From positions 21,991,501-22,055,500 of the forward strand of contig CM046870.1 of assembly GCA_025617745.1 (NCBI GenBank): 64,000 nt of DNA, given 5' to 3'. The notes beneath the pieces are model-generated. The model ran no database searches, was not told the DNA's origin, and saw only the letters and a list, made by a program, of their open reading frames with translations. Positions 2,331 to 59,458 of the stretch are shown here, in pieces (the stretch's first letter is position 1; each line of letters begins with the position of its first letter). This stretch comes from Heliocidaris erythrogramma (taxonomy: Eukaryota; Echinodermata; Echinoidea; Camarodonta; Echinometridae). The translations under genes and the position numbers were made by a program.

Positions 2331-2642
2331 AATTAGCAACAAGGGCCTATACATCTGGATCACCATGTGGGGGTCAGTTAACACTGCTTCAAGACATGAA
2401 CCTTTGAAGCCACTGCATCCACAAGCATAAGACAATTGGGATGACTATATGGTGGCAACTCCAGCCTGACCACCATGCACTGCCAAAAAAAGGGCAGTTT
2501 CCACAGATGGGACAGAATATGTGTAGGGTTTCCAAGCCTGAAATTCACCTTGCACACTTGGTGATACTGAAGTATTGTAAAATTACTACTTCATCAAACC
2601 AGTAAAATCAGAATTGATTTTATTATTTGCTAGATAAATCTA

Positions 2643-2779
2643 TGTACCTACCTATTTGCTAGTCTTCCGACTACGCAAGCCATTCGAGTAATTAAAGTCA
2701 TGACAGTGCATATACCCCCCTAGGATCACGCCTTCCTCTGTGCACGTACGCATGACGCGCGCACACAATCCTCCTCTTT
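2643..2779. repeat. DIRS inverted terminal repeat (3' side of element)
   Basis: It is the inverted counterpart of 8645-8783. Blocks such as CTTCCGACTACGCAAGCC, ACCCCCCTAGGATCACG and GCACACAATCCTCCTC all occur as reverse complements at the other end. Outside the shared core the two termini differ, as in other DIRS elements with unequal terminal extensions. Confidence 0.9.
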
Positions 2780-2839
2780 ACGAGCAGCCTCAGACAAACT
2801 TTGACATGTTGCTAGGCAAGGAGTGGGGTAGGAGGGTGG

Positions 2840-2938
2840 GACATAGGTAGGTACATAGATTTATCTAGCAAATAATAAAATCAATTCTGATTTTACTGAT
2901 TTACTACAATAAATCAATGTACCTACCTATTTGCTAGA
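2840..2938. repeat. DIRS internal complementary region (ICR)
   Basis: 2840-2898 is the reverse complement of the left terminus (2600-2655). It is followed without a gap by the reverse complement of the right terminus (8760-8799). In DIRS1 such a region is thought to template joining of the two ends into a circular replication intermediate (family knowledge). Here it is intact and adjoins the recombinase 3' end at 2980. Confidence 0.88.
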
Positions 2939-2979
2939 CCAGCACAGATTCAAATGGGGGGCATGTCCCAAGAGGAAGG

Positions 2980-3990
2980 TCAACAGGAACCCAAGGATGA
3001 CGTTGCAGCTTGCAACGTCTTGTTAGAAAAAGACTCTTCAGACAGAACATCTTTTAAATAAAAAGATGTGAAGGACGTGGAGGAGCGCCAGTAGGCTGCC
3101 CTCATAATGTCCACTAGGGGCACCCCTTGGAAAAGAGCCCAAGAGGCACTGATGCCCCTGGTATCGGGAGCACGGGGCTTCCCATCACTCAATAGGGCCT
3201 CCGGCCCAGCTGCCTGGATCGCTTCGACTATCCATCTAGAAATGGATTCTCTGGAAGCGGGGGAAAAGGGCTTTCGAGTGATGACAAAAAGCTGATCACT
3301 CTTACGAAGAGTCTTAGTCCTATCTAAATACCATTTCAAGGCCCTCACCGGACACCAGACCTTATCCTCCTGCACCGAGGAATGGTCCGACAGCGGTCTA
3401 AGAAAAATCTCAACTGGACCAGAGGAAGCAGTCTGATTTTTGGCAATAAAGGAGGGCTTGGGTATAGGTCGCACACCATGGTTTTCCCAACGGATGTGAC
3501 CCGGTGTTATACACAGAGCATGAAGAGTACTCCTCTTCTGTGCCGAAGCAATAGCGACTAAAAATAGCGTCTTGACCGTTAATGGTGAAAGGACGCTTTA
3601 CCCAAAGGTTCAAAAGGTGGCTTCGCAAGCACGTCAAGGACCTTGGGTAGACTCCAAGAAGGAGTCAGGCTACGAGTTGATGGACGCTGCAAGAAGAACG
3701 AGCGAGTCAACCTAGCCAAAAGAGGGGAGTTGGAGACTCCCGAACCATCAGCAAAACCAACGTGGACGGCGGCAATAGCCGAACGATAGCCACGTATGGT
3801 TGAAATCGATCTACCCTTATCGAAAAGGGAGATCAAAAAATCGGCAATAACACCAATAGGGGCTTCACGTGGCGAGACATCCCTGATTCTCGCACCAAGA
3901 AAAGAAGGCCCCTAGACGAGAGTTGTAGAGATCTCTGGTGGAGTCTCTACGGATTCTCATTACAAACTGGGAGGCCCTTTCGGAGAGCCC
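2980..3990 (-). pseudogene. DIRS tyrosine recombinase, two frameshifts
   Basis: The gene encodes a phage-integrase-type tyrosine recombinase that would insert the circular cDNA. The N-terminal core-binding part (STRDLYNSRLGAFFSW) lies just above 3865 in a frame overlapping the end of the RT gene. The next block (ISTIRGYRSAIAAVH) lies in 3579-3836, and the catalytic C-terminal part in 2980-3590. The last block shows the DTRGISAS arginine box and the AAYWRSS...FYL segment with the presumed catalytic tyrosine. The three blocks are collinear with the family but sit in different frames. One shift lies near 3865 and one near 3590, so the enzyme is broken in this copy. The start within the overlap is uncertain. 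Confidence 0.82.
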
Positions 3991-5891
3991 CGAATTTCTG
4001 GCGTCTTCCCCAACAACGGCCAGGCAGTCAAGTGGAGGACCGCTGGGCGTTGATGAACAATCCCCGAGAGGGGTTGAATTATCAAATCCTCCCTGAGAGG
4101 AAGGGGAAACGGCTGGCCGGCCAGGAGACTCAGCAGGTCTGGAAACCAATGTCTCGCTGGCCAATGTGGGGCTATCAACAAGAGCCAAGCCCTGTCCTCC
4201 TTGACCTTCCTCAAGACCTGAGGGATCAGAGGAATGGGGGGAAAAGCGTACCCCTGGATAGCTCCCCAATGGAGGGAAAAGGCATCCATCGCCCACGCCT
4301 CCTGATCCCGAACCCGCGAGCAATACCTCGGGAGTCGGTGATTGAGGGTGGAGGCGAACAGATCGATCTCCAGAGGACCCCACACCTCTTGGAGAAGAGC
4401 AAACACCTCCGGATGAAGAGTCCACTCTGACGGGAGGCATTTGCCCCGCGACAGAAAATCCGCGATCAGATTTTCCTGACCGGGAATGTAGGAGGCTACC
4501 GGAATAATGTTCATAGACCGGCACCACCTCCACAACTGGGCAGCTAAGGTGTTCAGAGAGGAAGACCGAGTGCCGCCTTGGCGATTGATATAGGCAGCTA
4601 CTGTGACATTGTCCGTAAGAACGAGTACAGTGCGACCAACAAGACCGGGCCTGAAATGATGAAGAGACAGGCTGACCGTCATCATTTCCAAAACATTGAC
4701 ATGGGGCATAACTCTCAAGTGAGACCAGTCCCCTGAAATCATCTCGCCCCGGCAATGACCGCCCCAACCGAGAAGGGAGGCGTCTGTCGCCAGAGAAACT
4801 GACGGAAGAGGGGAACAGAGAGGCTTGCCTTGGGCAAGAAACGAACTGTTCGACCAGGGGGCGAGAAGGAGCTTGATATCTCTTGGGAGTGGAATCCACC
4901 CCAAAGGAGAATCTTTGCCCGGTCTGAAAAGCTTGAGGAGGTGCCTCTGAAAGGGCCTCATCAACAGCCTGCAGTCTGGTAAGACGTCGACTAGACTGGC
5001 CAGATAGCCCAGGAATTGAAGCCATTGTCTGGCTCTGACCCTGCGGGCTACTCGCAATGACCGTGCGGTCATGGTGATAGTCCGAATTCTGTCCCGACTG
5101 GGGCGGGCAAGCTGATTCGGGATATCTATCTCCGCACCCAAGTACACCGGGGTACGTGTGGGAGATAATTCCGATTTTTCCCAGTTTATCAGAAAGCCTA
5201 AGTCTTGCGTTAGTCGCAGTAAAAGGCATAACTGATCCAACAGGAGGGACTCTGAGTTTGCAACTAGGAGCCAATCGTCTAGATAGACGAATAATCGGAG
5301 GCCGCGATTCCGTAGAAACGCGGCCAGGGCCGACACTATTCGGGTAAAGACTCGAGGGGCCGGCCTCAGCCCAAAGGGCAGGGCACGAAATCGAAACGTT
5401 TCGCCCTGGAACGCGAATCCCAGCAAATTTCTCGACAGAGAGTGAATGGGAATGTGAAAGTACGCGTCTTTGAGATCGAGGGAGATCGCAAGGTCGTCCC
5501 GTTTGATCAAGGGCAGAATAGATGCCAAGGTCTCCATGCGAAAATGCACTGGAGGTATAAACCTGTTGATTCTTTTCATGTTTAGAATCATTCGTAAACT
5601 TCCCGAGCGCTTGGGAATGACAAAAATTGGGGAGAGACAGAGATGAGGATGATCTCTCGCCCTCTCTACAGCGCCCTTTCCCAGCAGTGTGGCGATCTCT
5701 GAGGAGATGTGCTGCTGGAAAAGGGCTGACATTTGAGGCGGGCGGATTCTGATGGCGCCGTTTGGAATCGGCTTTATCAGATCTATGTAAAAGCCGTCGC
5801 GCACGACGGATAGTACGAAGGCGTCGCCGGAGATTGCCTCCCAAACTGGGAGGAATCTCTGGAGCCGCCCGCCTACACTGTCCACAAGCAC
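3960..5891 (-). CDS. DIRS reverse transcriptase / RNase H / methyltransferase-like polyprotein
   Basis: This is a 643-residue open frame. Residues about 60-290 are a reverse transcriptase with SLDLKDAYFHIPI and the catalytic box FVYLDD (Y at about residue 202). Residues about 360-460 are RNase H, with ATDAS, LTDN and the DFLSRG end. Residues about 505-600 carry the EIDLFAS...DAFSLHW...AFPPIPLI block, often annotated in DIRS elements as a DAM-like N6-methyltransferase. The product would copy element RNA into cDNA. The start at 5891 overlaps the gag-like frame by about 18 nt, and the 3' end overlaps the recombinase, both usual for DIRS. No in-frame stop interrupts it. A 659-codon opposite-phase frame over the same DNA (3865-5844) is a shadow apart from its last part, which is recombinase. 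Confidence 0.9.
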   Translation of the reverse strand: MLVDSVGGRLQRFLPVWEAISGDAFVLSVVRDGFYIDLIKPIPNGAIRIRPPQMSALFQQHISSEIATLLGKGAVERARDHPHLCLSPIFVIPKRSGSLRMILNMKRINRFIPPVHFRMETLASILPLIKRDDLAISLDLKDAYFHIPIHSLSRNLLGFAFQGETFRFRALPFGLRPAPRVFTRIVSALAAFLRNRGLRLFVYLDDWLLVANSESLLLDQLCLLLRLTQDLGFLINWEKSELSPTRTPVYLGAEIDIPNQLARPSRDRIRTITMTARSLRVARRVRARQWLQFLGYLASLVDVLPDCRLLMRPFQRHLLKLFRPGKDSPLGWIPLPRDIKLLLAPWSNSSFLAQGKPLCSPLPSVSLATDASLLGWGGHCRGEMISGDWSHLRVMPHVNVLEMMTVSLSLHHFRPGLVGRTVLVLTDNVTVAAYINRQGGTRSSSLNTLAAQLWRWCRSMNIIPVASYIPGQENLIADFLSRGKCLPSEWTLHPEVFALLQEVWGPLEIDLFASTLNHRLPRYCSRVRDQEAWAMDAFSLHWGAIQGYAFPPIPLIPQVLRKVKEDRAWLLLIAPHWPARHWFPDLLSLLAGQPFPLPLREDLIIQPLSGIVHQRPAVLHLTAWPLLGKTPEIRGSPKGPPSL

Positions 5892-7099
5892 CCGAGGTAA
5901 GGTATCAAAAGGCCGACTTGGGCCTGACCGGGGCCCTTGGCGGCGGTCTTACGCCCCCCTCTTCCTCTCGCCGAGCCTCTACCACGGTTGCCCAGGGTAG
6001 GGGTCTCAACCCGAGGGATAGTCACAGTCACTCGACGATTTGAGCGGTTAGCGCCTGTCGAGACCGACTTAGACTTCGGAAAGGACCGAGCAGGCTGAGT
6101 GGGCAGGAATTGTCTGGCCATCTCCTTTGCCTGTTTGCGACCCTCTATCTCTTTGAGGAAGACCTCGTTAAACTGGCCCCCAAAGAGTTTGGGATGAGAG
6201 GAAGGGATACCCCGCAAGAGAGGCGGGATGTCTTTCTCTAGCACTCCCAGTGTGGAGAGCGCCAACTTGCGGCGTTGATGCATAATGTCAATCGCCGCTG
6301 ATGAGAGCTGAGACCACTGAAGTCCAGCTAACAAAAGCAGGAGTTCATCCAACAAATTGGAGTCCCCCTCGGTCACATTCAGTTCAACTGACCTGGCCCG
6401 AAGGCGTAACAGTGAACCCAGGTACGCCGAAAGCTTTAAGCCCGAACTGACTTTGGTTTCAAAGTTCACTAGGGGCTTCTCGGCGGATCTATAGGACTGA
6501 GACTTGAAATTGATATTCAAACATTGTCCCATACCCAAAATTTCCTGGGATAAACCCTTGGCTGAAAAGAAGCCCTGGGTATCATCCCGATAGAAAGAGA
6601 AGGCACTTTCAAAGGGAAGTCGGGTAGCCCGACCCGCATCGGAGAGTGCCTCCCTATCCCCATACTCCTGTTTGAAGTCCTCTGTAAGAGGAATACCAGG
6701 AGACGGGCCATGCTGTCTGAATAACAGCGATGGCTGATCACTGTCCGACTGGACTTGGGGAAAAATTTCTGGCATATACTTCTCTAACAGGGCCTTGGCA
6801 TCTGCCGCCATAGCCTGACAAGGCTGGGGGTCGTAGCCGGCCTGAGATTCTGAAACAGACGGGGTAGAAACCTGCGAGACAGAATCAAATTCGGGAGAAG
6901 TAGTCCGGTGGGTAAAATCCCATGGGGGTGGATATGACCATGGACCAGTGACAGACTCCTCCCCCGGCAGGGCTCCGAGAGCCGCAGGCACGGGAGGAGT
7001 AGGTCGAGATACCGCATTCGGACAAAATTGTCCCAGGTTCTCATGAATATCGGAGACCGGGAAAACACCGGGGTCCGACTCGGGAACATCCTCCATCAC
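5873..7099 (-). CDS. DIRS gag-like protein, C-terminal open segment
   Basis: This is a 408-codon open segment directly upstream of, and slightly overlapping, the RT gene. It is acidic and proline-rich at the start. A central helical stretch (FNEVFLKEIEGRKQAKEMARQF) follows, and it ends in a basic, RG-rich region (RGRGSARGRGG), consistent with a nucleic-acid-binding structural protein. The reading frame continues open upstream of the first methionine to about 7180, where it is separated by a frameshift from a lysine-rich block. The true protein therefore starts further upstream. Assignment as gag rests on position and composition, not on a recognised domain. Confidence 0.65.
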   Translation of the reverse strand: MMEDVPESDPGVFPVSDIHENLGQFCPNAVSRPTPPVPAALGALPGEESVTGPWSYPPPWDFTHRTTSPEFDSVSQVSTPSVSESQAGYDPQPCQAMAADAKALLEKYMPEIFPQVQSDSDQPSLLFRQHGPSPGIPLTEDFKQEYGDREALSDAGRATRLPFESAFSFYRDDTQGFFSAKGLSQEILGMGQCLNINFKSQSYRSAEKPLVNFETKVSSGLKLSAYLGSLLRLRARSVELNVTEGDSNLLDELLLLLAGLQWSQLSSAAIDIMHQRRKLALSTLGVLEKDIPPLLRGIPSSHPKLFGGQFNEVFLKEIEGRKQAKEMARQFLPTQPARSFPKSKSVSTGANRSNRRVTVTIPRVETPTLGNRGRGSARGRGGRKTAAKGPGQAQVGLLIPYLGCLWTV

Positions 7100-7172
7100 A
7101 GTGACAACTGACTGGGGAGAACCCTTCTCAATAGCCGGCAGCGTCGGGGGATTAGTATCCGAACCATGCCGC

Positions 7173-8181
7173 TCAGCAAAGAGTCAATAATCTGAGCAAC
7201 TCAGATTGAGAGTCGGGGGGAAGAGAGGGCTGAGCCTTCTTACCCGACTTGGGTTTATCCTTGGATTTACCCTTCTTGGCTTTAAGCTTCTTAGCGGGGG
7301 TGTGAGCCACCGTAATAGAAGGCCGTTTAGAAGCACGGGAAGTGTTAGGCTGCAGAGTAGAAGCCTCACTACCCAAATTGTCCGAGCCGGGCTCCCCAGT
7401 GGGGAGAAGCAATTCGGCCGCAACTCTAGGGACTGTGCTTCCCCGACCAGAGCCCCGATTCGCATCGACTGCCGGGGGTGGACGGGCTGCTGCATTGCAG
7501 CACTGCTGGGAAAAGCACCCGGAGCACTGACGTTGGTCAGTGGCTGGCGGGAACCAGCAGTCTTCCGCTGCGAGAACCTGCTCGAAGAGGAGGTCTTCTT
7601 AGCGGGATGCGGATTTGCGTTACCGGCTGTAATTCCCCCAGACACACCGACGGTGGTCGGATGTCGGGGGAAGCCAGTAACACTGGGTGAAATCTCGCTA
7701 GGCACCCCGACGGTGGTCGGGGGTCGGCAAGACCCAGTAACATCATTAGCTGACCGCTTAGCGGTCTTACCAGTTAATGCCCCCTCCAGGCTCCCGACGG
7801 TGGTCGGGGGTCGAGAGGACCCGGTAATACTAGCTACCGCCCCACCAACTGCACAGACGCGGTGGTCGTGAGTTGGAGGGAGCTAGAATTGCTAATGACG
7901 GGTGTTCGGTCCGAAGACTTATGAACACCTAACTTACCTATATAGCCTGTCTTGCTCGACGCTCCCGGTACAAAAATACCACAGCGAGCCGACAGACTGA
8001 CGCCCTTACCTCCCCTGACCATCGTGTTTGACTCGCTGTTAGGCGAGCGAAACACAGAGGTCTCCAACACACTCACTGAGCTGACGCCCTTATAAGTGAG
8101 AGTAGTGGAAGGGAGGGAAGAAGAATTGGAAGAGCACGGAGGCAACCAAGACCTCGATTGCTCTTCCTCCGAAGAACTCAT
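7173..8181 (-). pseudogene. DIRS gag-like N-terminal region, disrupted
   Basis: Coding-like fragments lie in three frames. The first is a start at 8181 (MSSSEEEQ..., serine-rich) that runs to a stop at 7834. A second fragment lies at 7184-7705. A third is a strongly basic stretch at 7173-7412 (TPAKKLKAKKGKSKDKPK), likely the nuclear-localising or nucleic-acid-binding part. At least two frame changes are needed to join them to the intact segment below 7099. An imperfect GACGGTGGTCGGGGGTCG minisatellite inside (7648-7870) may have caused some of the length changes. Confidence 0.55.
7648..7870. repeat. Imperfect minisatellite in the DIRS gag region
   Basis: The word CCGACGGTGGTCGGGGGTCG recurs at about 7646, 7706 and 7793, with a partial copy near 7858. 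Two copies are followed by GACCCAGTAAC-like sequence. Spacings are 60-90 bp, not multiples of one unit, so this is a decayed array. Confidence 0.6.
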
Positions 8182-8644
8182 TATCACCTGTAAGGAGATA
8201 TAAAAAGAGTCAAACAATAAACAATTGTAAAGAAAAGGGCGTACAAAGCGAGAGTGAAACGGAATGGAATTTTCCCGCGCAATGTGTGGAAAATTCCATT
8301 CACGCACTACGAACAAAAGAACACTCTCGTAAGGGTATATGCACACAACAGCCACACACACGAAACACCAACGAAACGTTACAGGGCTGAGCGCCCGGCA
8401 AAACGCCAAAGCGAATGCCCTGGGCTACTATACGAAAGAGGTGAAAAGTGAGGTATGAATTTAAGCTCAAATATCACCAAAATAAATACGTGACAGACAT
8501 AAACCGACACTAAACAGATATTAAACAAGTCTAGGACGGAAATATTGGCAAAAGTCACCCAAAAACGCGCTAAAAGAGTAGCAAACTCTGATTTTTTTGC
8601 GCAAGATAGTGACTTAGCTGCAACTCTTTATGCTGCGAGAAGGA

Positions 8645-8783
8645 AAGAGGAGGATTGTGTGCGCGCGTCATGCGTACGTGCACAGAGGAAGGCGTGATCC
8701 TAGGGGGGTATATGCACTGTCGTGACTTTAATTACTCGAATGGCTTGCGTAGTCGGAAGACTAGCAAATAGGTAGGTACATTG
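8645..8783. repeat. DIRS inverted terminal repeat (5' side of element)
   Basis: It is the reverse-complement partner of 2643-2779. It lies upstream of the gag-like region and is followed by the terminal extension to 8799, whose complement forms half of the internal complementary region. The element promoter would be expected here, but no motif was assigned. Confidence 0.88.
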
Positions 8784-8799
8784 ATTTATTGTAGTAAAT

Positions 8800-10758: not shown

Positions 10759-10769
10759 CGCATCCAAGC

Positions 10770-10952
10770 ACTGGGCGTTGTGGCGTGCGCCTGTAATCCA
10801 GCTACCAGTGGAAGTTATAAACTGATTCAGCGGACCCAGGTTCGAGACTGAGTCACGTCTTTCGGATGGTGACGTTAAAGGTCGGTCCCAGACGTAAATA
10901 ATCATATCTGATTGATACACGTCTGTAAAAACCCAATTACACACACAAGCAC
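10770..10952 (+). mobile_element. SINE with 7SL-RNA-like head
   Basis: The 183-bp element is flanked by an 11-bp direct repeat CGCATCCAAGC (10759-10769 and 10953-10963). Its head reads GGGCGTTGTGGCGTGCGCC then TGTAATCCAGCTAC. It closely resembles the 5' Alu domain of 7SL RNA (GGGCGCGGTGGCGCGTGCC then TGTAGTCCCAGCTAC in human, from memory). A B-box-like GGTTCGAGACT follows. The 3' part has CTTTCGGATGGTGACGTTAAAGG, resembling a tail word I recall from other marine-animal SINEs. The target duplication is seen directly; the 7SL origin of the head is inferred from similarity by eye. Confidence 0.75.
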
Positions 10953-11315
10953 CGCATCCAAGCTCCAAGGTCAATATTGTGAACATAACATTAAAGATAA
11001 AGTTGAGTTCTGGTCATGCAATTACATTGCGAAAGAAATTATCTCAAAGCAATTTGGAAAGGTTTATCATGTTAGGGTATACTGTGAGGTTTTGAATCGT
11101 CAAAATGATAACAAATTCACCTAATCTCGCTGCAAACACATATGCACTGCACACAGAAATGGGTATATGGGACTGCACACACACATGGGGCATGGATGTT
11201 CGGCCAGAACACTTTAGCTTTTTCTCGTCATATTTCGAATATGAGGGCATTTGAAGAGCAATCAATTTCAGGGAACATTTCTACTATGATATTCTTCCAA
11301 AATGACATACCGTAA

Positions 11316-11930: not shown

Positions 11931-12307
11931 TAAAGATACATGTAAAATAAATGAGAAAAATATGTTTTTCACCTTTCCTGTAATACAACCTCTTTAACAC
12001 AGGGCATCTGGTCCTATTACATGTAGGTTTAGGACACTTCACTGTACAGCATAATAATCTCATCATACAGTAGTTCATTCAAGAGGATATCCTGCTCTCA
12101 TCATTATACACTAGAAGTTATCAAACCATAAGCACTCTACCAAGCATTAATGTGAAGAATGCACTTGTCATGCACACTAAATTCCTGATGGGTATGAACA
12201 TGAAACCACAGGTAGTCCTAAAATCTCATGCAAGTTCAGCTAAAGGACATTAATGCGCAGAATGTGCGTGTCATGCTAATTGGTGCACATGAAGTTATCA
12301 CAAACCA

Positions 12308-12445
12308 GGGGAGCGTTTCATCAAGTGTTTTGTCAGTGATTTTTACCAACAACTGATATAAGCTACTGAAATCCTTGCATCTGATTGGCTGAGAGCAAAT
12401 TTGTCAGTAAAAATCACTGACAAGACACTTGATGAAACGCTCCCC
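12308..12445. mobile_element. Short palindromic MITE (GGGGAGCGTTTCATCAAG family), copy 1
   Basis: Inverted arms of about 38 bp (GGGGAGCGTTTCATCAAG... and its complement, with GTCAGTGATTTTTAC) surround a core ATAAGCTACTGAAATCCTTG then CATCTGATTGGCTGAGAG. A second copy is at 53298-53435. Confidence 0.85.
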
Positions 12446-12777
12446 AGAACATGTTGGTGATAAGAGGGCCGTGGAGCAGTGGCTGCCAAGTCTGTTCAGG
12501 GATTAAATAGTTGAATGAGAGAATTCTTGCTTGATTTCAATAGTTTGCTAACAGCATGTTCAATCTAGACTGACTGAAAAAAAAACAATCCCAAACTGGA
12601 CACCTCTGGGGGGTGGTCCACGAGAGATAGCGCGATCTAGAGAATGCCTATTTGCAGTTTACTGTGCAGAGAGTGCCAAGATAAAGAGTGCCAAGATAGA
12701 TCGCGCTAACCTCTGCAGGTGTGAACCTGTGGACCTCCCTCTTGAAATGAGAACGGGGTCTCTAGAGAGGAGAGGGA

Positions 12778-26318: not shown

Positions 26319-28175
26319 ATGAAGGTATTAGCATCACTCTTGCTTCTTGTCATGCTATACTTCTGTCGGACTACATCTGCAAAACTAATGTGGCGGATGA
26401 AGCCGAATGAAATTATTGCCCTTAGAGGTAACTTGGTGATGCTGAACTGTTTTGTGGATGGACGTAACATCACTAATCCTGGAGAACACAAGTTCTGGTG
26501 GTACAGAGTGGACAGGAATGTGGTCCTCAGTAAGAACTTGCAGATCACCGCTACTGACCCTGACAGTGATCGCTACAGTGTACTCCTGGACAAATACAGG
26601 GGAGTATACTCACTTGTGATTAGAAACGTTTCCGAGGGTGATGGAGGTCTTTACCAGTGTCTCTTGAAGCAGTCCAGAAATGGCCCACAAGAGGCATCTG
26701 ACAATGCCAGCTTGACTGTACTTACTCCTCCAACACATGGGTACAAGCCCTGCACCATGTTCACCCAATCAAACATCATTCTTTCTCCCCAAGAAAACCG
26801 AGCTCTTAGGTGTCCCAAGTCAACAGACTCTTTCTGGAGAAGTGTCAGTTCTAACGTTGTCACAAATGAAACAGTTTACCACAGCTGGACAGCAAAAAGG
26901 CAAGTCCTCCATGCATTCTTCCTGCAGAACAAGACAACACTTTTGTCTGAATCATCAACTATTGAGAACCAAGAAACTGTTTACTGTGCTGTGAACAGTT
27001 CAATGCTTCAACAGTTTCCCAACAGATGCACACTGATTCCACGTGCCACATCAACAAAAGCCATCATAACACCACCTATCATAGATGTCACAAATGGAGA
27101 CACAGTTAACTTCACTTGCAGTCATGAAGATATAGCTGTTGCTATTGACTTCACTTGGGATATCCCTATAGAACTTGAGGTTGCTGGAATCCAGTTTGTG
27201 AAAAATGGAAGAGCAATTATCCTGAAGGGTATTAACGGAAATTGGGGGGACATGCTGGATATTGTGTGTCAGGTAACGACTGAGTGGGGTGTTAAAGCCA
27301 ATGCAACAGCTACAATAGCATTTTTGCATAAGCTGATCACAACACCTGTAGTAAATGCTATTGCGAAAGGTGAGAAAGTAGAGAGGCCAGAAGTGATACA
27401 GCCACGACCTATTATACCAGATGAATCCCAAAGGCCATCAAGATCTAGTAATCCAGCCTTGAAGAATATAAGCATCTTGATTGGACCTGCACTAGGTGTG
27501 ATTATTCTGTTTCTCCTTGCAGTCATATTTGCACTCTGCATCACAAAACGCAAGACATCTTCTGCAAAGCACCAGCTCAGACTGACACATCAACTCTCTT
27601 CTTCCTCGGATCCTCAGAAGACGGTTACTCTGAGATCTGTCAGCAAGCCTTCCAACAGGAACAGTCGCTCATCAAGGCGCTTCTCAGACTCCTTCACCTA
27701 TCGATTCAGCAGGGACTGTGAATATGAGAACATTGAAGCATACATGGCAAAGAAGGGACAGTTCCTTGGTGGGACAACATCTTTCCAAGATGAGAACAAT
27801 CAACCAATGGAGGCAAACGTCAGGGTGAAAATAGAAATGCCCAACAGCCTTAGCACCAGTATGCCAGCCTTGAATGCTTGTAAGATCTCGTCGAATATCA
27901 ACAGCCATGCAGTGAATGAAGCGAACTACCAACAACACTACAGCAACCACCAGCCACACATCACCAGCCACCAACCCTACAAGCCTTTGGCAAACGGGAA
28001 TGCCTATGCCACCAGAGAACAACTAGGGTTTCCATCCTTGATCAGCCATGATCTTCGAGACACGCAGCATTACCATGTGCCCACAACGACATCAACAATG
28101 CCTCATGCAGTTATTGATCGGTCAAAAAAGGCCATGAAACCACCTAATCCACCTCCAAGGAAACCTTCTTACTGA
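26319..28175 (+). CDS. Single-exon Ig-superfamily type I membrane receptor
   Basis: The product is 618 residues. A signal peptide (1-21, hydrophobic core LLLLVMLYF) precedes an Ig V-like domain, C44 to C114, with WWY at 60-62 and the classic DGGLYQC motif at 108-114. A cysteine-containing middle region follows (C145, C165, C223), then a third Ig-like domain, C267 to C317, with FTW between. Residues 384-408 form the membrane helix, followed by KRK. The tail of about 210 residues carries Y469 in YENI (a pYxN-type SH2 target pattern), a His/Gln/Asn-rich stretch and a proline-rich end PPNPPPRKPSY. Extracellular N-x-S/T sites (N50, N103 and others) suggest glycosylation. A cell-surface recognition or adhesion receptor is inferred; ligand and family are unknown. 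It lies antisense inside PSMC3IP intron 2. An acceptor-like TTTGCCTTACAG ends at 26248, so a 5' UTR intron is possible. Confidence 0.88.
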   Translation: MKVLASLLLLVMLYFCRTTSAKLMWRMKPNEIIALRGNLVMLNCFVDGRNITNPGEHKFWWYRVDRNVVLSKNLQITATDPDSDRYSVLLDKYRGVYSLVIRNVSEGDGGLYQCLLKQSRNGPQEASDNASLTVLTPPTHGYKPCTMFTQSNIILSPQENRALRCPKSTDSFWRSVSSNVVTNETVYHSWTAKRQVLHAFFLQNKTTLLSESSTIENQETVYCAVNSSMLQQFPNRCTLIPRATSTKAIITPPIIDVTNGDTVNFTCSHEDIAVAIDFTWDIPIELEVAGIQFVKNGRAIILKGINGNWGDMLDIVCQVTTEWGVKANATATIAFLHKLITTPVVNAIAKGEKVERPEVIQPRPIIPDESQRPSRSSNPALKNISILIGPALGVIILFLLAVIFALCITKRKTSSAKHQLRLTHQLSSSSDPQKTVTLRSVSKPSNRNSRSSRRFSDSFTYRFSRDCEYENIEAYMAKKGQFLGGTTSFQDENNQPMEANVRVKIEMPNSLSTSMPALNACKISSNINSHAVNEANYQQHYSNHQPHITSHQPYKPLANGNAYATREQLGFPSLISHDLRDTQHYHVPTTTSTMPHAVIDRSKKAMKPPNPPPRKPSY

Positions 28176-30590: not shown

Positions 30591-31204
30591 AAAGGGAAAG
30601 TCCACCCTAATATCAAGTTGGTTTCGGAAGAAGCAAAAAGATTAAAGAAACATATCAATGATAGTTTGAGAAAATTCCAATAAGAAACTAGAATTGAATT
30701 CGTCATGAGGACGAATTAGGTGGTCTGTCTTTCAATTTGTACGATCATGATTGTAATCAGGATGATCATAATAATGGGAAAATACTAAACTGAAGATAGG
30801 ATGTCAAGAATGCCATGAATGGAGATGCTTCTTGAGGACAGGAATGTAGCAAAATGTGAAACGGTCATTGTAAAATGATTATGGTGATGATGATAATGGT
30901 GATTATGATGATTATAATGATATAATGATGTTGGCGATGATATAATAATAGCGATGATGATCATGACGGTGATGATAATAATGATGATGATACAGGATAC
31001 TTGGGAGATTAACCCCATAGCTCTAATACAGGACAGGAAATCACAATTTCCATAGGGTTGTACACAAACTACTGCACACTACTTTCTAATAGACATAATA
31101 CGGAAAATAAGGCAGTTTATTACATGATTTGTGATTTTTTATGTTACAATAGTCGAAGAGGATGGTAAAATGACAGGCAAAAAGAAGCAAAAAAAAAAAA
31201 AAAA

Positions 31205-31275
31205 AAAATCGGCCCGGGGATCGAACCAGGTACCTTGACCATGGTAGTCATGTGCTTTACCGATAGACCAGAATA
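31205..31275 (-). other. tRNA-like Pol III module in repeat copy 1
   Basis: On the minus strand it reads TGGTCTATCGGTAAAGCA (A-box-like), then an anticodon-arm-like segment, then GGTTCGATCCC (B box), followed by a run of about 20 T (plus-strand A-tract 31188-31208) that would stop Pol III. The 5' acceptor strand does not pair with the 3' end, so it is not called a functional tRNA. Confidence 0.6.
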
Positions 31276-32497
31276 TTTCCCATAGAGATAACACGTAAAC
31301 GAAAACGGGATTCTCAAATCACATTTTGTACTGAAAAATTGGGCATGATCCCGACATCTGATCAAAATTTGGAGACCACATTTGTAAAAGCTTATAGTCT
31401 CAGCTACAACATATTAAAATCTGGAAGAAAATAGACCAAAAATAACTGAGATACTGCTCAGAGAACGATGTCATGTAGATTCATGATTCGAAAAAAAGTC
31501 ATCTTCCATAGACATAACACGCAAATAGGGAAAATTCTGACATGGCGTCTTTAATTGAACATTTCAGTGTGATGACGTCATCCAAATGCAAAACAGTGGA
31601 GCGTTATGTTGTAGAGAATTGTCTCAGCTATAACATATCAAAATTTGGAAGAAAATCAACCACCTATTACTGAAATATTATCAAAAGAATACAAAAATGA
31701 TGACATAATTTTTTCAAAATCATTTTTTTGAGTTCATATGCAAATATGATGACGTTAGAACATGAGATCGGCAAAAATTCTACATGAATTCATATCTACA
31801 ACTCACAGGCTTTCAGAATATGTAAAGAAATTGGGGGGTTTCCGCCCCTTCTGAGGAGCTATGGCGAATTCTAGATGGGCATGTTTTTACCACTTTTTGC
31901 ATTAGAATGCCCTTTGACGTGCGCACAAATTTGAAAGTTTGACGCGCGCGTACGACATTATGGAAGGTCGATAATGACTGTAAATAGTTGGAAATTGTCA
32001 AGAATATTATCAGGAAGATGAAACATGCGAAAAACAGCGTTTTTATGTTCTCTACGCGCTGTGCGCGCGCATAACGTGCGCGCGGACGCGCACGGACAGG
32101 AAATTTTTAAATGCGTAAAATGTCCTGAACCATACCCTAATTTGATTAAAAAGTGATTTGGAGCATTTTTAAATTTTGACGCGCGCGTACGTGCGCGTCA
32201 TGATGCGCGCACAGATTTTAATGACATTTTATGTTGACCCTTGACCTGAAGTTCATGTGTGTCAAATATGGTTTATTTTTGATGACTCGTTATGAAGATA
32301 TGATTGATAATGTGATTTCACAAAATGGCGCCTGGATGACGTCACGATGACCTAATGACCTTGAAATAGATACCCGAGCTTGATCTTATAAGTCCTCATA
32401 ACTGTAGAGACTTTCATAAAAATTGACTCAGCCGATATTGAGGAATCATGGTAACAAGAAAGTGGTGGAAAAATAAAAATAAATAATAAAGAATAAT

Positions 32498-32612
32498 AAA
32501 TAAAGAAAATTCTGACGAAATTAAGAGGTGGTCTGTCGACTACGACAGACCACCTAATAAAGAAAATTCTGACGAAATTAAGAGGTGGTCTGTCGACTAC
32601 GACAGACCACCT
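32498..32612. repeat. 57-bp tandem duplication at transposon end
   Basis: AAAGAAAATTCTGACGAAAT plus the hairpin GGTGGTCTGTCGACTACGAC and its complement occurs twice in direct order with no visible difference, so it is a recent duplication. Confidence 0.9.
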
Positions 32613-52967: not shown

Positions 52968-53297
52968 CTAAAATACACAGAAAGAAACCATTGATACAAA
53001 AGGTTACAGTGCTGTTTATTTCCTAAATTAGTTAATCTTCATGAAAACAGGTGTTAAATAACTGTCAATATCATTTTCATTTCTTCTTTCAGTGAAAAAT
53101 CCAGGATTACTTGACTGGGGCAGGGGGACACACATATTTGTCAAGTGTCAACAATCTATGACAACAACAAAAAAGAAAGAAAGAAAAAAAAAAGGTTTCT
53201 CAAATTTGCACATGTGTGTATTATGCATAGACAGATGTTGACATGGGCTTACAATAACTTACACTTGCAAGCACAATCTTTCTAGCATTAGACAACA

Positions 53298-53435
53298 GGG
53301 GAGCATTTCATCAAGCGTTTTATCAGTGATTTTTACTGACAAATTTGCTCTCAACCAATCAGATGCAAGGATTTCAGCAGCTTATAACAGTTGTCGGTAA
53401 AAATCACTGACAAAACGCTTGATGAAACGCTCCCC
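53298..53435. mobile_element. Short palindromic MITE (GGGGAGCRTTTCATCAAG family), copy 2
   Basis: The arms match the element at 12308-12445 and the core is in inverted orientation (CTCTCAACCAATCAGATGC...CAGCTTATAACAG). It lies in INO80C intron 3. Confidence 0.85.
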
Positions 53436-53748
53436 AGAATTAACAAAATTTGGTGGTACCACGGGCAGGGAGGATCAGATTCTCTCTACCCCCCCTCCCC
53501 CTCTGGAATCTCAGCAGCAGCGTGAAAAAATACACTGTAAATGTACTTAAGAAACTTGGTGTGACAAGAAAACATTTTATAATGAATGATACACTGAAGT
53601 TTCAAATCGATATTTCCCAAAGTTTTAGAATTACCACTACCAGTAATTAATCATTTATATAATTCAGGTATGACAATTCTGCACTGTGTACAATATGTAC
53701 AGTGAAATGTCCCCATCCCTAGCCCTTGTCATAAATTATGTTTTTACT

Positions 53749-56738: not shown

Positions 56739-57616
56739 CTGTAAAACACCAGAAGCTTGGTCATCTTTTGACTGGCATAAGGGAGATACAGTAATAAGGA
56801 TAACTAGAAATTTAATTCGTCATGACGACGAATTAGGTGGTCTGTCTTTCAATTTGTATGATCATGATTATAATCAGGATGATCATAACAATGGGGAAAT
56901 GCTAAACTGAAGATAGGAAGTCAAGAATGCCATGAATGGAGATGCTTCTTGAGGACAGGAATGTAACAAAATGTGGGAAACGGTCATTGTAAAATGATTA
57001 TGGTGATGATATTGGTGATGATTATAATGATATAATGATGGTTATAATGATTATGATGATATAATGATGATGGTGATGATATAATAATAATAGCGATGAT
57101 GATCATAACGGTGATGATAATAATGATGATGTTGATGTTGGTGATAATCATGATGATGATGATGATGATGATGATGATGTAATGATGATTATGATGGTGA
57201 TGATAATCATGATGATGAAGGTGATAATGATGATTATTGATGATGTGATAATGGTGATGATTATGGTGATGGTGATTATGAAGATGACGATATAATGATG
57301 ATGATGGTGATGATGATGGTAATGGTGGGGATAATGGTGTTGACCATGACTGCAATGACAGTGACCTTAACAATGCCAAATATGAAAGAGAAATCACATT
57401 TTGTTATGAAGATACGACCATAAGTTGATTTTTACAAAATGGCGCCTGGATGACGTCACGATAATCTGATGACCTTGAAAAAGATGCGGGGACTTGACCT
57501 TATTAGGACTGATGGCTGACGAAAATTTGAAGATAATTGACTAAGCCAATTTTGAGAAATTGTGATATCAAATAGCACTATTTGACAGTGTAGGATACTT
57601 TGGAGATAAACCCAAT

Positions 57617-57928
57617 GGCCCGTATTCTGAACTCCGGTTTAACTTAAACCATGGTTTAAATCTGTGGTTTAACTATGGGTAGCCAAAAATGTCAAAACTG
57701 TGTTTACACTGTATGTTCCTTATGTTTTCTGGATACTGGTCTCGTGCTTTAATGGTCAAGAAAAATATTCTACTTATCATTCCCAGACAGTTTTTAAAAG
57801 CTTGAGTACCAAAAATGCTGATAAATTGAATATCTACTGTTTGAGATTTGTGTCACATTTGGCTGCCCATAGTTAAACCACACATTTAGACCATGGTTTA
57901 AGTTAAACCGGAGTTCAGAATACGGGCC
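57617..57928. mobile_element. Foldback MITE (GGCCCGTATTCTGAACTCCGG), copy 1
   Basis: The ends GGCCCGTATTCTGAACTCCGG and complement, with GTTTAACTTAAACCATGG, give arms of about 75 bp. AAT borders both sides. The host repeat copy at 31010-31025 lacks it, giving an empty site. Confidence 0.9.
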
Positions 57929-58124
57929 AATAGCTTTAATACACGACAGGCAATCACAATTTCCATAGGGTTGTACACAAACTACTGCACACTACTTTCC
58001 AATAGACAAAACACGCAAAATAAGGCACTTTAGTACATGGTTTGGGATTGTATATGATATAATAGTCGAAGAAGATGGTAAAATGAAAGGCAAAAAGAAG
58101 CAAAAAAAAAAAAAAAAATTATGG

Positions 58125-58196
58125 ACCCACAGGGGATCGAACCTGGGTCACCGGAATGAGAGGCAAGTGCTATAACCAATAGACCAAAATATTTCC
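58125..58196 (-). other. tRNA-like Pol III module in repeat copy 2
   Basis: On the minus strand: TGGTCTATTGGTTATAGCA (A-box-like), CTTGCCTCTCATTCCGG, then GGTTCGATCCCCTG (B box), GTGGGTCC and a T-run (A-tract at 58103-58118). The 5' acceptor strand is missing and the anticodon stem pairs poorly, so it is tRNA-derived rather than a tRNA gene. It sits at the same place as the module in copy 1. Confidence 0.6.
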
Positions 58197-59458
58197 CATA
58201 GAGATAACACGTAAACGAAAAACGGGATTCTGAAATTCCATTTTGTAGTTAAAAATTGGGCATGATCCCGACATCTGATCAAAAATTGGAGACCACATTT
58301 ATAAAAGCTTATAGTCTCAGCTATAACATACTAAAATCTGGAAGAAAATAGACCAAAAACAACTGAGATACAGCTCAGAGAACAATGTCATGTAGATTCA
58401 TGATTCGAAAAAAAATCATCTTCCATAGACATAACACGCAAATAGGGAAAATTCTGACATGGCATCTTTAATTGAAAATTTCACTGTGATGACGTCATCA
58501 AAATGAAAAATGGTGGTGACTGATTTTGTAGGAAATTGCCTCAGCTACAACATATTAAAATCTGGGCGAAAAACGACCAATAATTACGAATCTAGAGCCC
58601 AATTTGCATAAATGTGATAACGTCAAAACATGAAAAATGGAAATTTTGAATTCTGGCGCCATTTTGATGACGTCATAATGTTTATAAGGGTCAAATGATA
58701 CTTGAAATGAAATCTATGATTCATACCCTACCTGATGATGAAAAGAAATTGGGGGGTTTATGGACTATTTAAAGAGCTAGAGTTAATTTTGTAGAGGCAT
58801 GTTTTTGCACGTTTTTACGTTATTTTCGCCATAGATGCGCGCACAGATTTTGAACTTTGACGCGCCCGTACGACCTTATTATTGATTGAAATTGATTCCA
58901 AGTTGATGGAAATGATGAAGAAAAGTGTCAGGATTGCAAATCAATCGAAAAAACAGCGTTTTAACGTTATTTACGACTTCGCGGACGCTTACGCACGGAC
59001 ATTTTTGAAATGCTCAAAATGACCTGAAACGTGTGCAGACTTGATCCTACGTGATTTTGAGCATTTTTAAATTTTGACGCGCGCGTACGCGCACGTCCTG
59101 ACCTCTAGATGACCTGTGAGGAGATGACTTGATGACCCGTCATGTGAAGTTTATGTGATGTGAATATAGTTGATTTTTGATGATCGATTATGAAGATATA
59201 ATCGATCTTGTAAATTTACAAAATGGCGTCTTGATGACGTCACAATGACCTGATGACCTCCAAAAGCTTAATGGACCATGTCCATGATTGACCTCATACA
59301 TGACATGAAACTCGATGATAGTGACCTGACCGATTTTGAGATTTGGTGGGAACAAAAATTTGTAATAAAAAGAAATAATAAAATTAATAATAAAGAAAAT
59401 CTTGACAAAATTAAAAGGAGGTCTGTCATAAATGACAGACCACCTAACAAGATACAAT

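What the first reader, a model, noticed from the sequence alone, without database searches (positions are those of the whole stretch)
10770..10952. SINE with a 7SL-RNA-like head in a probable invertebrate
The head shows the 7SL Alu-domain signature (GTGGCGTGCGCC, TGTAATCCAGCTAC), followed by a B-box-like word, a tail shared with other marine SINEs and an exact 11-bp target duplication. Well-known 7SL-derived SINEs are vertebrate. One here would be an independent origin from the signal-recognition-particle RNA.
Basis: partly seen in the sequence, partly recalled or inferred. Interest (0 to 1): 0.7.

Follow-up and report, generated by a model that had tools for sequence, protein, structure and literature searches.

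The report
Lone SINE with 7SL-like start
A short jumping-DNA insertion in an animal-type genome begins with the front end of the signal-recognition-particle RNA, a kind of start described so far mainly in a few vertebrates, but only one copy could be examined and its host could not be named.

Summary
The core observation holds. Window 10770-10952 is a 183-bp insertion flanked by an exact 11-bp duplication. Base 1 of the Rfam metazoan 7SL model falls on the first base after the duplication: 34.3 bits, E 2.6e-7 for 501 bases, 3.3e-5 for the window. No tRNA or 5S family reaches E 10.

7SL likeness covers 36 ungapped bases (31 identical), about 46 if the 5'-domain base pairs count (12 of 14 standard, two changed on both sides). 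After that no 7SL similarity exceeds shuffles. The B-box word there fits a tRNA box better than the 7SL box.

Best reading: a SINE joining the 7SL 5' domain to a tRNA-type B box and a LINE-like tail.

Not shown: further copies (one in the window, none in the virus and prokaryote collections, own-genome search unanswered in 11 of 11 tries), host 7SL, host identity, relatives of the tail. A one-off chimeric retrocopy remains possible. A 2024 paper limits 7SL-headed SINEs to primates, rodents and hagfishes (PMC10886601); a 2019 survey claims Alu in 48 arthropod genomes (PMC6327564).

The parts
10759..10769 (+). left copy of the 11-bp target site duplication, CGCATCCAAGC
   Evidence: exact match to 10953-10963
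10770..10952 (+). whole inserted element, 183 bp, one copy in the window
   Evidence: bounded by the duplication; no other copy in the window by short-word blastn
10770..10815 (+). 7SL-RNA-like 5' domain (Rfam model positions 1-44); 36 ungapped bases, then a 2-nt insert and the 3' strands of two short helices
   Evidence: RF00017 match; 31 of 36 identical; 12 of 14 domain pairs standard
10774..10783 (+). putative Pol III A box, GGCGTTGTGG (human 7SL GGCGCGGTGG, hagfish GGCGCAGTGG as printed in PMC7245038)
   Evidence: 8 of 10 identical to either, read
10792..10796 (+). UGUAA loop of the 7SL 5' domain; part of the SRP9/14 site (role recalled, not from a call)
   Evidence: aligned without change to upper-case consensus letters
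10822..10845 (+). stretch resembling part of a unit with tRNA-type boxes found elsewhere in the window
   Evidence: 20 of 24 bases to 58137-58160 minus strand; E 0.21 for the window, so weak
10839..10849 (+). putative Pol III B box, GGTTCGAGACT
   Evidence: only GGTTCGANNC on the + strand of the window; 7 of 11 to the human 7SL B box printed in PMC7245038; 8 of 9 fixed positions of the tRNA B-box consensus (consensus recalled)
10850..10952 (+). body and tail with the word CTTTCGGATGGTGACGTTAAAGGTCGGTCCC, ending in an ACACACAAGCAC stretch; LINE-like tail by inference only
   Evidence: sequence; bases 10808-10952 match no RNA family better than E 9.5; no relatives in the collections searched
10953..10963 (+). 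right copy of the target site duplication
   Evidence: exact match to 10759-10769

Best explanation
A non-autonomous retroposon (SINE) with a composite head. Its first about 46 bases come from the 5' (Alu) domain of 7SL RNA and bring the A box and the fold that SRP9/14 binds. The B box further on comes from, or has converged on, a tRNA-type promoter, as if a reverse transcriptase copying a tRNA-headed SINE had switched to 7SL RNA and run to its 5' end. Proposed life cycle: RNA polymerase III transcribes it from the two boxes; the Alu-type fold parks the RNA on ribosomes through SRP9/14; a LINE reverse transcriptase that knows the tail copies it into a nicked target, leaving the 11-bp duplication. 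Shown here: the 7SL-like start at the insertion boundary, the kept pairs of that domain, the duplication, a B-box word. Inferred: transcription, SRP9/14 binding, the LINE partner, the template switch, the tRNA origin of the second half, and that it is a family rather than one event.
For: 7SL base 1 sits at the insertion boundary and RF00017 scores 34.3 bits (E 3.3e-5 for the whole window). 31 of 36 identical, next best 20. All five differences lie at the 18 lower-case consensus positions and none at the 18 upper-case ones (p 0.023), as expected of a constrained 7SL-type RNA. Two of the three pairs of the outermost helix changed on both sides (G-C to A-U, C-G to U-A). Exact duplication. Bases 53-76 resemble a unit with tRNA-type boxes at 20 of 24 bases, while bases 37-95 are no better than shuffles against 7SL. 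Precedent: the hagfish SINE is explained as a join of 7SL and a tRNA-headed SINE (PMC7245038).
Against: Only one copy. The tRNA side is weak: window-wide E 0.21; the small p is for a unit picked because it matched, and the second unit gives p 0.19; Rfam finds no tRNA at the 58.1-kb unit up to E 10, and ARAGORN folds the units as tRNAs only with its threshold lowered to 70%. The head does not fold better than shuffles (z 0.24, -0.57, -0.42), and the free fold does not form the outermost helix. Two of 14 domain pairs fail. The box spacing (65 nt) is nearer to 7SL. No LINE partner was found. The tail's kinship rests on memory.
Confidence: 0.55

Rival explanations
1. A one-off chimeric retrocopy: a LINE reverse transcriptase copying an ordinary SINE jumped once onto 7SL RNA and inserted the hybrid. 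It is not a family and was never active again.
For: One copy in 64 kb; 7SL likeness ends abruptly near base 36-46; retrocopies of 7SL and other small RNAs are known (PMC7245038).
Against: Needs a host 7SL with the same five differences, including the paired ones, which is possible but untested.
Confidence: 0.22
2. A fully 7SL-derived head (5' and 3' parts of the Alu domain, as in Alu, B1 and the hagfish SINE) whose second half has diverged.
For: A-to-B-box spacing is 65 nt (boxes at nt 5 and 70) against 70 in human 7SL (6-15 and 76-86) and much less in tRNAs (recalled); a loose end-to-end alignment to 7SL exists, with GGA, CCAG and GTTC words in order; the Rfam alignment runs to the 3' end of the model.
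Against: Bases 37-90 against 7SL p 0.55 local and 0.12 global, bases 49-110 against the 7SL 3' end p 0.19; bases 37-95 p 0.44; low posterior values after about base 46.
Confidence: 0.16
3. The host is a vertebrate (hagfish or another non-mammal), so this is a further vertebrate 7SL SINE, not an invertebrate one. (Not exclusive of the other readings.)
For: Hagfish carry one (PMC7245038); no call names the host; automatic annotation also reports SINE/7SL in a caecilian (PMC8498967, passages).
Against: Differs from the hagfish family: 183 against 282 bp, 11 against about 17-bp duplication, no AAC tail, 7SL likeness 36-46 against 96 bp plus the 3' part.
Confidence: 0.15
4. Chance similarity or contamination by mammalian Alu.
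For: A core of about 25 bases carries much of the likeness.
Against: the letters follow the Rfam metazoan consensus without a gap (31 of 36), while human 7SL (recalled letters) needs a gap and has 29 of 36.
Confidence: 0.03

Closest known systems
SINE1-1_EBu, hagfish (Kojima 2020, PMC7245038)
   Same: 7SL 5' end at element base 1, Pol III boxes, no L1-type poly(A) end, proposed origin by joining 7SL to a tRNA-headed SINE
   Different: Hagfish head keeps 96 bp of the 7SL 5' part plus its 3' part, is 282 bp, has an RTE tail with AAC repeats and about 17-bp duplications, and has 2363 full-length copies; here 36-46 bp, 183 bp, 11 bp, one copy seen
Alu / B1 (SINE1 of Euarchontoglires)
   Same: 5' domain of 7SL including the A box and the UGU loop (loop role recalled)
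   Different: Alu and B1 consist solely of 7SL sequence and use L1; here the second half of the head is not recognisably 7SL and there is no poly(A) end
7SL/tRNA composite SINEs of mammals (tree shrew Tu, bushbaby GarnAlu; named in PMC7245038)
   Same: joins of 7SL-derived and tRNA-derived SINE parts
   Different: here the 7SL piece would replace the first half of the head, so that the A box is 7SL and the B box tRNA-type (arrangement in the mammals not checked here)
tRNA-headed SINEs (SINE2)
   Same: B-box word
   Different: no tRNA family matches at E 10; the A-box half is 7SL-like

Membership tests
SINE (non-autonomous retroposon) | flanking target site duplication | tested here: met
   exact 11 bp
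SINE (non-autonomous retroposon) | small-RNA-derived head with Pol III boxes | tested here: met
   7SL-like start and A box, B-box word; promoter activity not testable here
SINE (non-autonomous retroposon) | many dispersed copies | tested here: inconclusive
   one in the window; own genome not reached in 11 of 11 tries
SINE (non-autonomous retroposon) | tail shared with a partner LINE | not tested
   no collection of animal LINEs was at hand
SINE1 (7SL-headed) | 5' end homologous to 7SL base 1 onward | tested here: met
SINE1 (7SL-headed) | 7SL-derived B box and 3' part of the Alu domain | tested here: not met
   no similarity above shuffles after base 36; 7 of 11 to the human 7SL B box; one diverged copy, so a consensus could change this
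SINE1 (7SL-headed) | Alu-domain fold | tested here: inconclusive
   12 of 14 pairs of the 5' domain form, two compensated; free folding is no better than shuffles
SINE2 (tRNA-headed) | tRNA-derived 5' head | tested here: not met
   no tRNA match; bases 1-48 against the local unit with tRNA-type boxes p 0.80

The most novel reading that the evidence does not exclude
An invertebrate SINE family with a hybrid Pol III head: the SRP9/14-binding 5' domain and A box of 7SL RNA fused to a tRNA-type B box. It would be an origin of 7SL-headed SINEs independent of mammals and hagfish, keeping only the 5' domain, which would point to that domain rather than the whole Alu fold as what such elements need.
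Probability: 0.38. Interest if true: 0.65.

Novelty: new variant of a known kind. Interest (0 to 1): 0.48.

Why it matters
7SL-headed SINEs are counted as having arisen very few times. A further origin, keeping only the 5' domain next to a tRNA-type B box, would give a natural test of which part of 7SL helps a SINE spread with a LINE that is not L1. It would also show that Pol III promoter halves from different small RNAs can be combined.

Tried and rejected
Copies outside the window: an exact and a degenerate head pattern in viral contigs, the degenerate one in prokaryote contigs, tail patterns in viral contigs and prokaryote contigs, blastn against plasmids and phages (one 21-base hit, E 0.6, in a staphylococcal phage). 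No copy found. The pattern allowed one base where this element has two, so it could not have found this element itself. These collections hold little animal DNA, so all this says almost nothing about copy number. The reverse transcriptase at 3960-5888 as bait in viral contigs for host contamination: 20 stretches matched a pattern, none was a relative.

Rejected: a tRNA or 5S start; chance; Alu contamination. Structure energy as support: dropped, because shuffles fold as well. The whole-window scan up to E 1 lists 11 matches, of which five hits of three microRNA models have lower E-values than 7SL. All five overlap repeat arms listed (I5, I16, I4), which I take as their cause. They warn that a low E-value by itself is not enough.

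Literature: ten searches, several listing only part of the papers found (30 of 297, 20 of 50, 37 of 38). The 2020 hagfish paper was read in parts 1-3 of 4; passages only were seen of PMC10886601, PMC3747384, PMC6327564, PMC5753468, PMC8010984 and PMC8498967. In these listings and passages I saw no characterised 7SL-headed SINE in an invertebrate, apart from the arthropod Alu claim of PMC6327564, made with an AluJo profile and not checked here. Subscription papers, Repbase and Dfam were not searched.

This weakens the tRNA side, so the best explanation went from 0.58 to 0.55, the all-7SL rival from 0.13 to 0.16, the novel case from 0.40 to 0.38.

Full report
What is there. Window 10770-10952 is a 183-bp stretch between two exact copies of CGCATCCAAGC. 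It occurs once in the window. Of 22,636 positions whose 11-mer is at least that complex, 132 recur 100-300 bp downstream and one at exactly this spacing, so the duplication is unlikely but not decisive by itself.

The 7SL match. A scan of 501 bases against all 4227 Rfam families gives metazoan SRP RNA at 10770-10862, 34.3 bits, E 2.6e-7; the other two matches up to E 10 are mir-1268 on the same bases and a snoRNA on the other strand, and no tRNA or 5S family appears. For the whole window the E-value is 3.3e-5, and five hits of three microRNA models, all overlapping repeat arms, have lower ones. The score is below Rfam's gathering score of 70, so one search lists nothing; this would fit a truncated 7SL. 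Model base 1 falls on the first base after the duplication. Ungapped, 31 of the first 36 bases equal the consensus; the next best places on either strand have 20, and the maximum in 40 Markov-generated windows is 22. The five differences (bases 1, 3, 9, 10, 17) all fall on the 18 lower-case consensus positions, none on the 18 upper-case ones (p 0.023).

Structure. Read on the Rfam structure, 12 of 14 pairs of the 5' domain are standard. The consensus pairs g1-c44 and c3-g42 are A-U and U-A here, changed on both sides, with C2-G43 kept, and a 2-nt insert in the loop before. The six bases GGAAGT that supply the 3' strands occur in 857 of 200,000 random 20-base stretches of the window; part of that string is expected from homology. 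The pairing is read on an alignment that was itself fitted to the structure. Against it, the free fold is no more stable than shuffles and omits the outer helix.

Where it stops. Alone, bases 39-183 (10808-10952) match no RNA family beyond chance (one match, E 9.5). Bases 37-90 against human 7SL 38-100 (recalled letters) give p 0.55 local and 0.12 global; bases 49-110 against the 7SL 3' end p 0.19; bases 37-95 with stricter scoring p 0.44.

The other half. The B-box word GGTTCGAGACT starts at element base 70 and is the only + strand GGTTCGANNC in the window; a looser word occurs 4 and 2 times on the two strands. The two strict words on the minus strand, at 31218 and 58134, lie in units with tRNA-type A- and B-box words followed by a run of T, inside a repeated stretch. 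Element bases 53-76 equal the 58.1-kb unit at 20 of 24 positions (shuffle p 2e-4), but this unit was picked because it matched: the window-wide blastn E is 0.21, and the other unit gives p 0.19. Rfam finds no tRNA at the 58.1-kb unit up to E 10; ARAGORN finds no tRNA in the window, none in the two units at default settings, and folds both only at a threshold lowered to 70%. So a tRNA origin of the second half is a lead, not a result. The box spacing (65 nt, against 70 in human 7SL) points the other way.

The tail. Bases from about 10850 carry CTTTCGGATGGTGACGTTAAAGGTCGGTCCC and end in ACACACAAGCAC.

Mechanism. Most likely a Pol III transcript mobilised by a LINE, with the 7SL 5' domain giving contact with SRP9/14 and ribosomes. 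For mammalian SINE1 that contact is described as required for retrotransposition (PMC7245038). Everything beyond the sequence anatomy is inference.

Known work. [quoted passage not shown] PMC5753468 of 2018 (passages) still said only euarchontoglires. PMC7245038 (parts 1-3 of 4) describes the hagfish family and its origin by joining 7SL with a tRNA-headed SINE. PMC6327564 (passages) claims Alu in 48 arthropod genomes. PMC8498967 (passages) lists SINE/7SL in a caecilian.

Limits. Family status, host, host 7SL and partner LINE are all open, because the own-genome search did not complete (11 of 11 calls).

Noticed in passing
58118-58192 minus and 31204-31275 minus: Two diverged copies of a unit with tRNA-type A- and B-box words followed by a long run of T, inside a large repeat pair (about 30692-32560 and 56809-59450, pieces joined by eye); perhaps a Pol III-driven part of a larger mobile element. 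Rfam sees no tRNA at the 58.1-kb copy.
   Followed up: partly
2634-8789: Reverse transcriptase ORF on the minus strand (RVT_1, E 1.2e-20) between 146-bp inverted repeats that are 99% complementary; reads like a DIRS-type retrotransposon (label recalled).
   Followed up: partly
26319-28175: Uninterrupted ORF of 618 aa with one Ig domain match (Ig_3, V-set) and, by eye, a signal-like start and a membrane segment.
   Followed up: no
96-470 minus: Exon of a Hop2-type homologous-pairing protein (TBPIP winged helix, E 2.3e-7; PDB 2mh2, E 4e-7); would help to name the host.
   Followed up: partly
12302-12451 and 53294-53441: Two copies, in opposite orientation, of a repeat (I5) that score against microRNA family MIR2606; probably a small hairpin transposon, by inference.
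   Followed up: no
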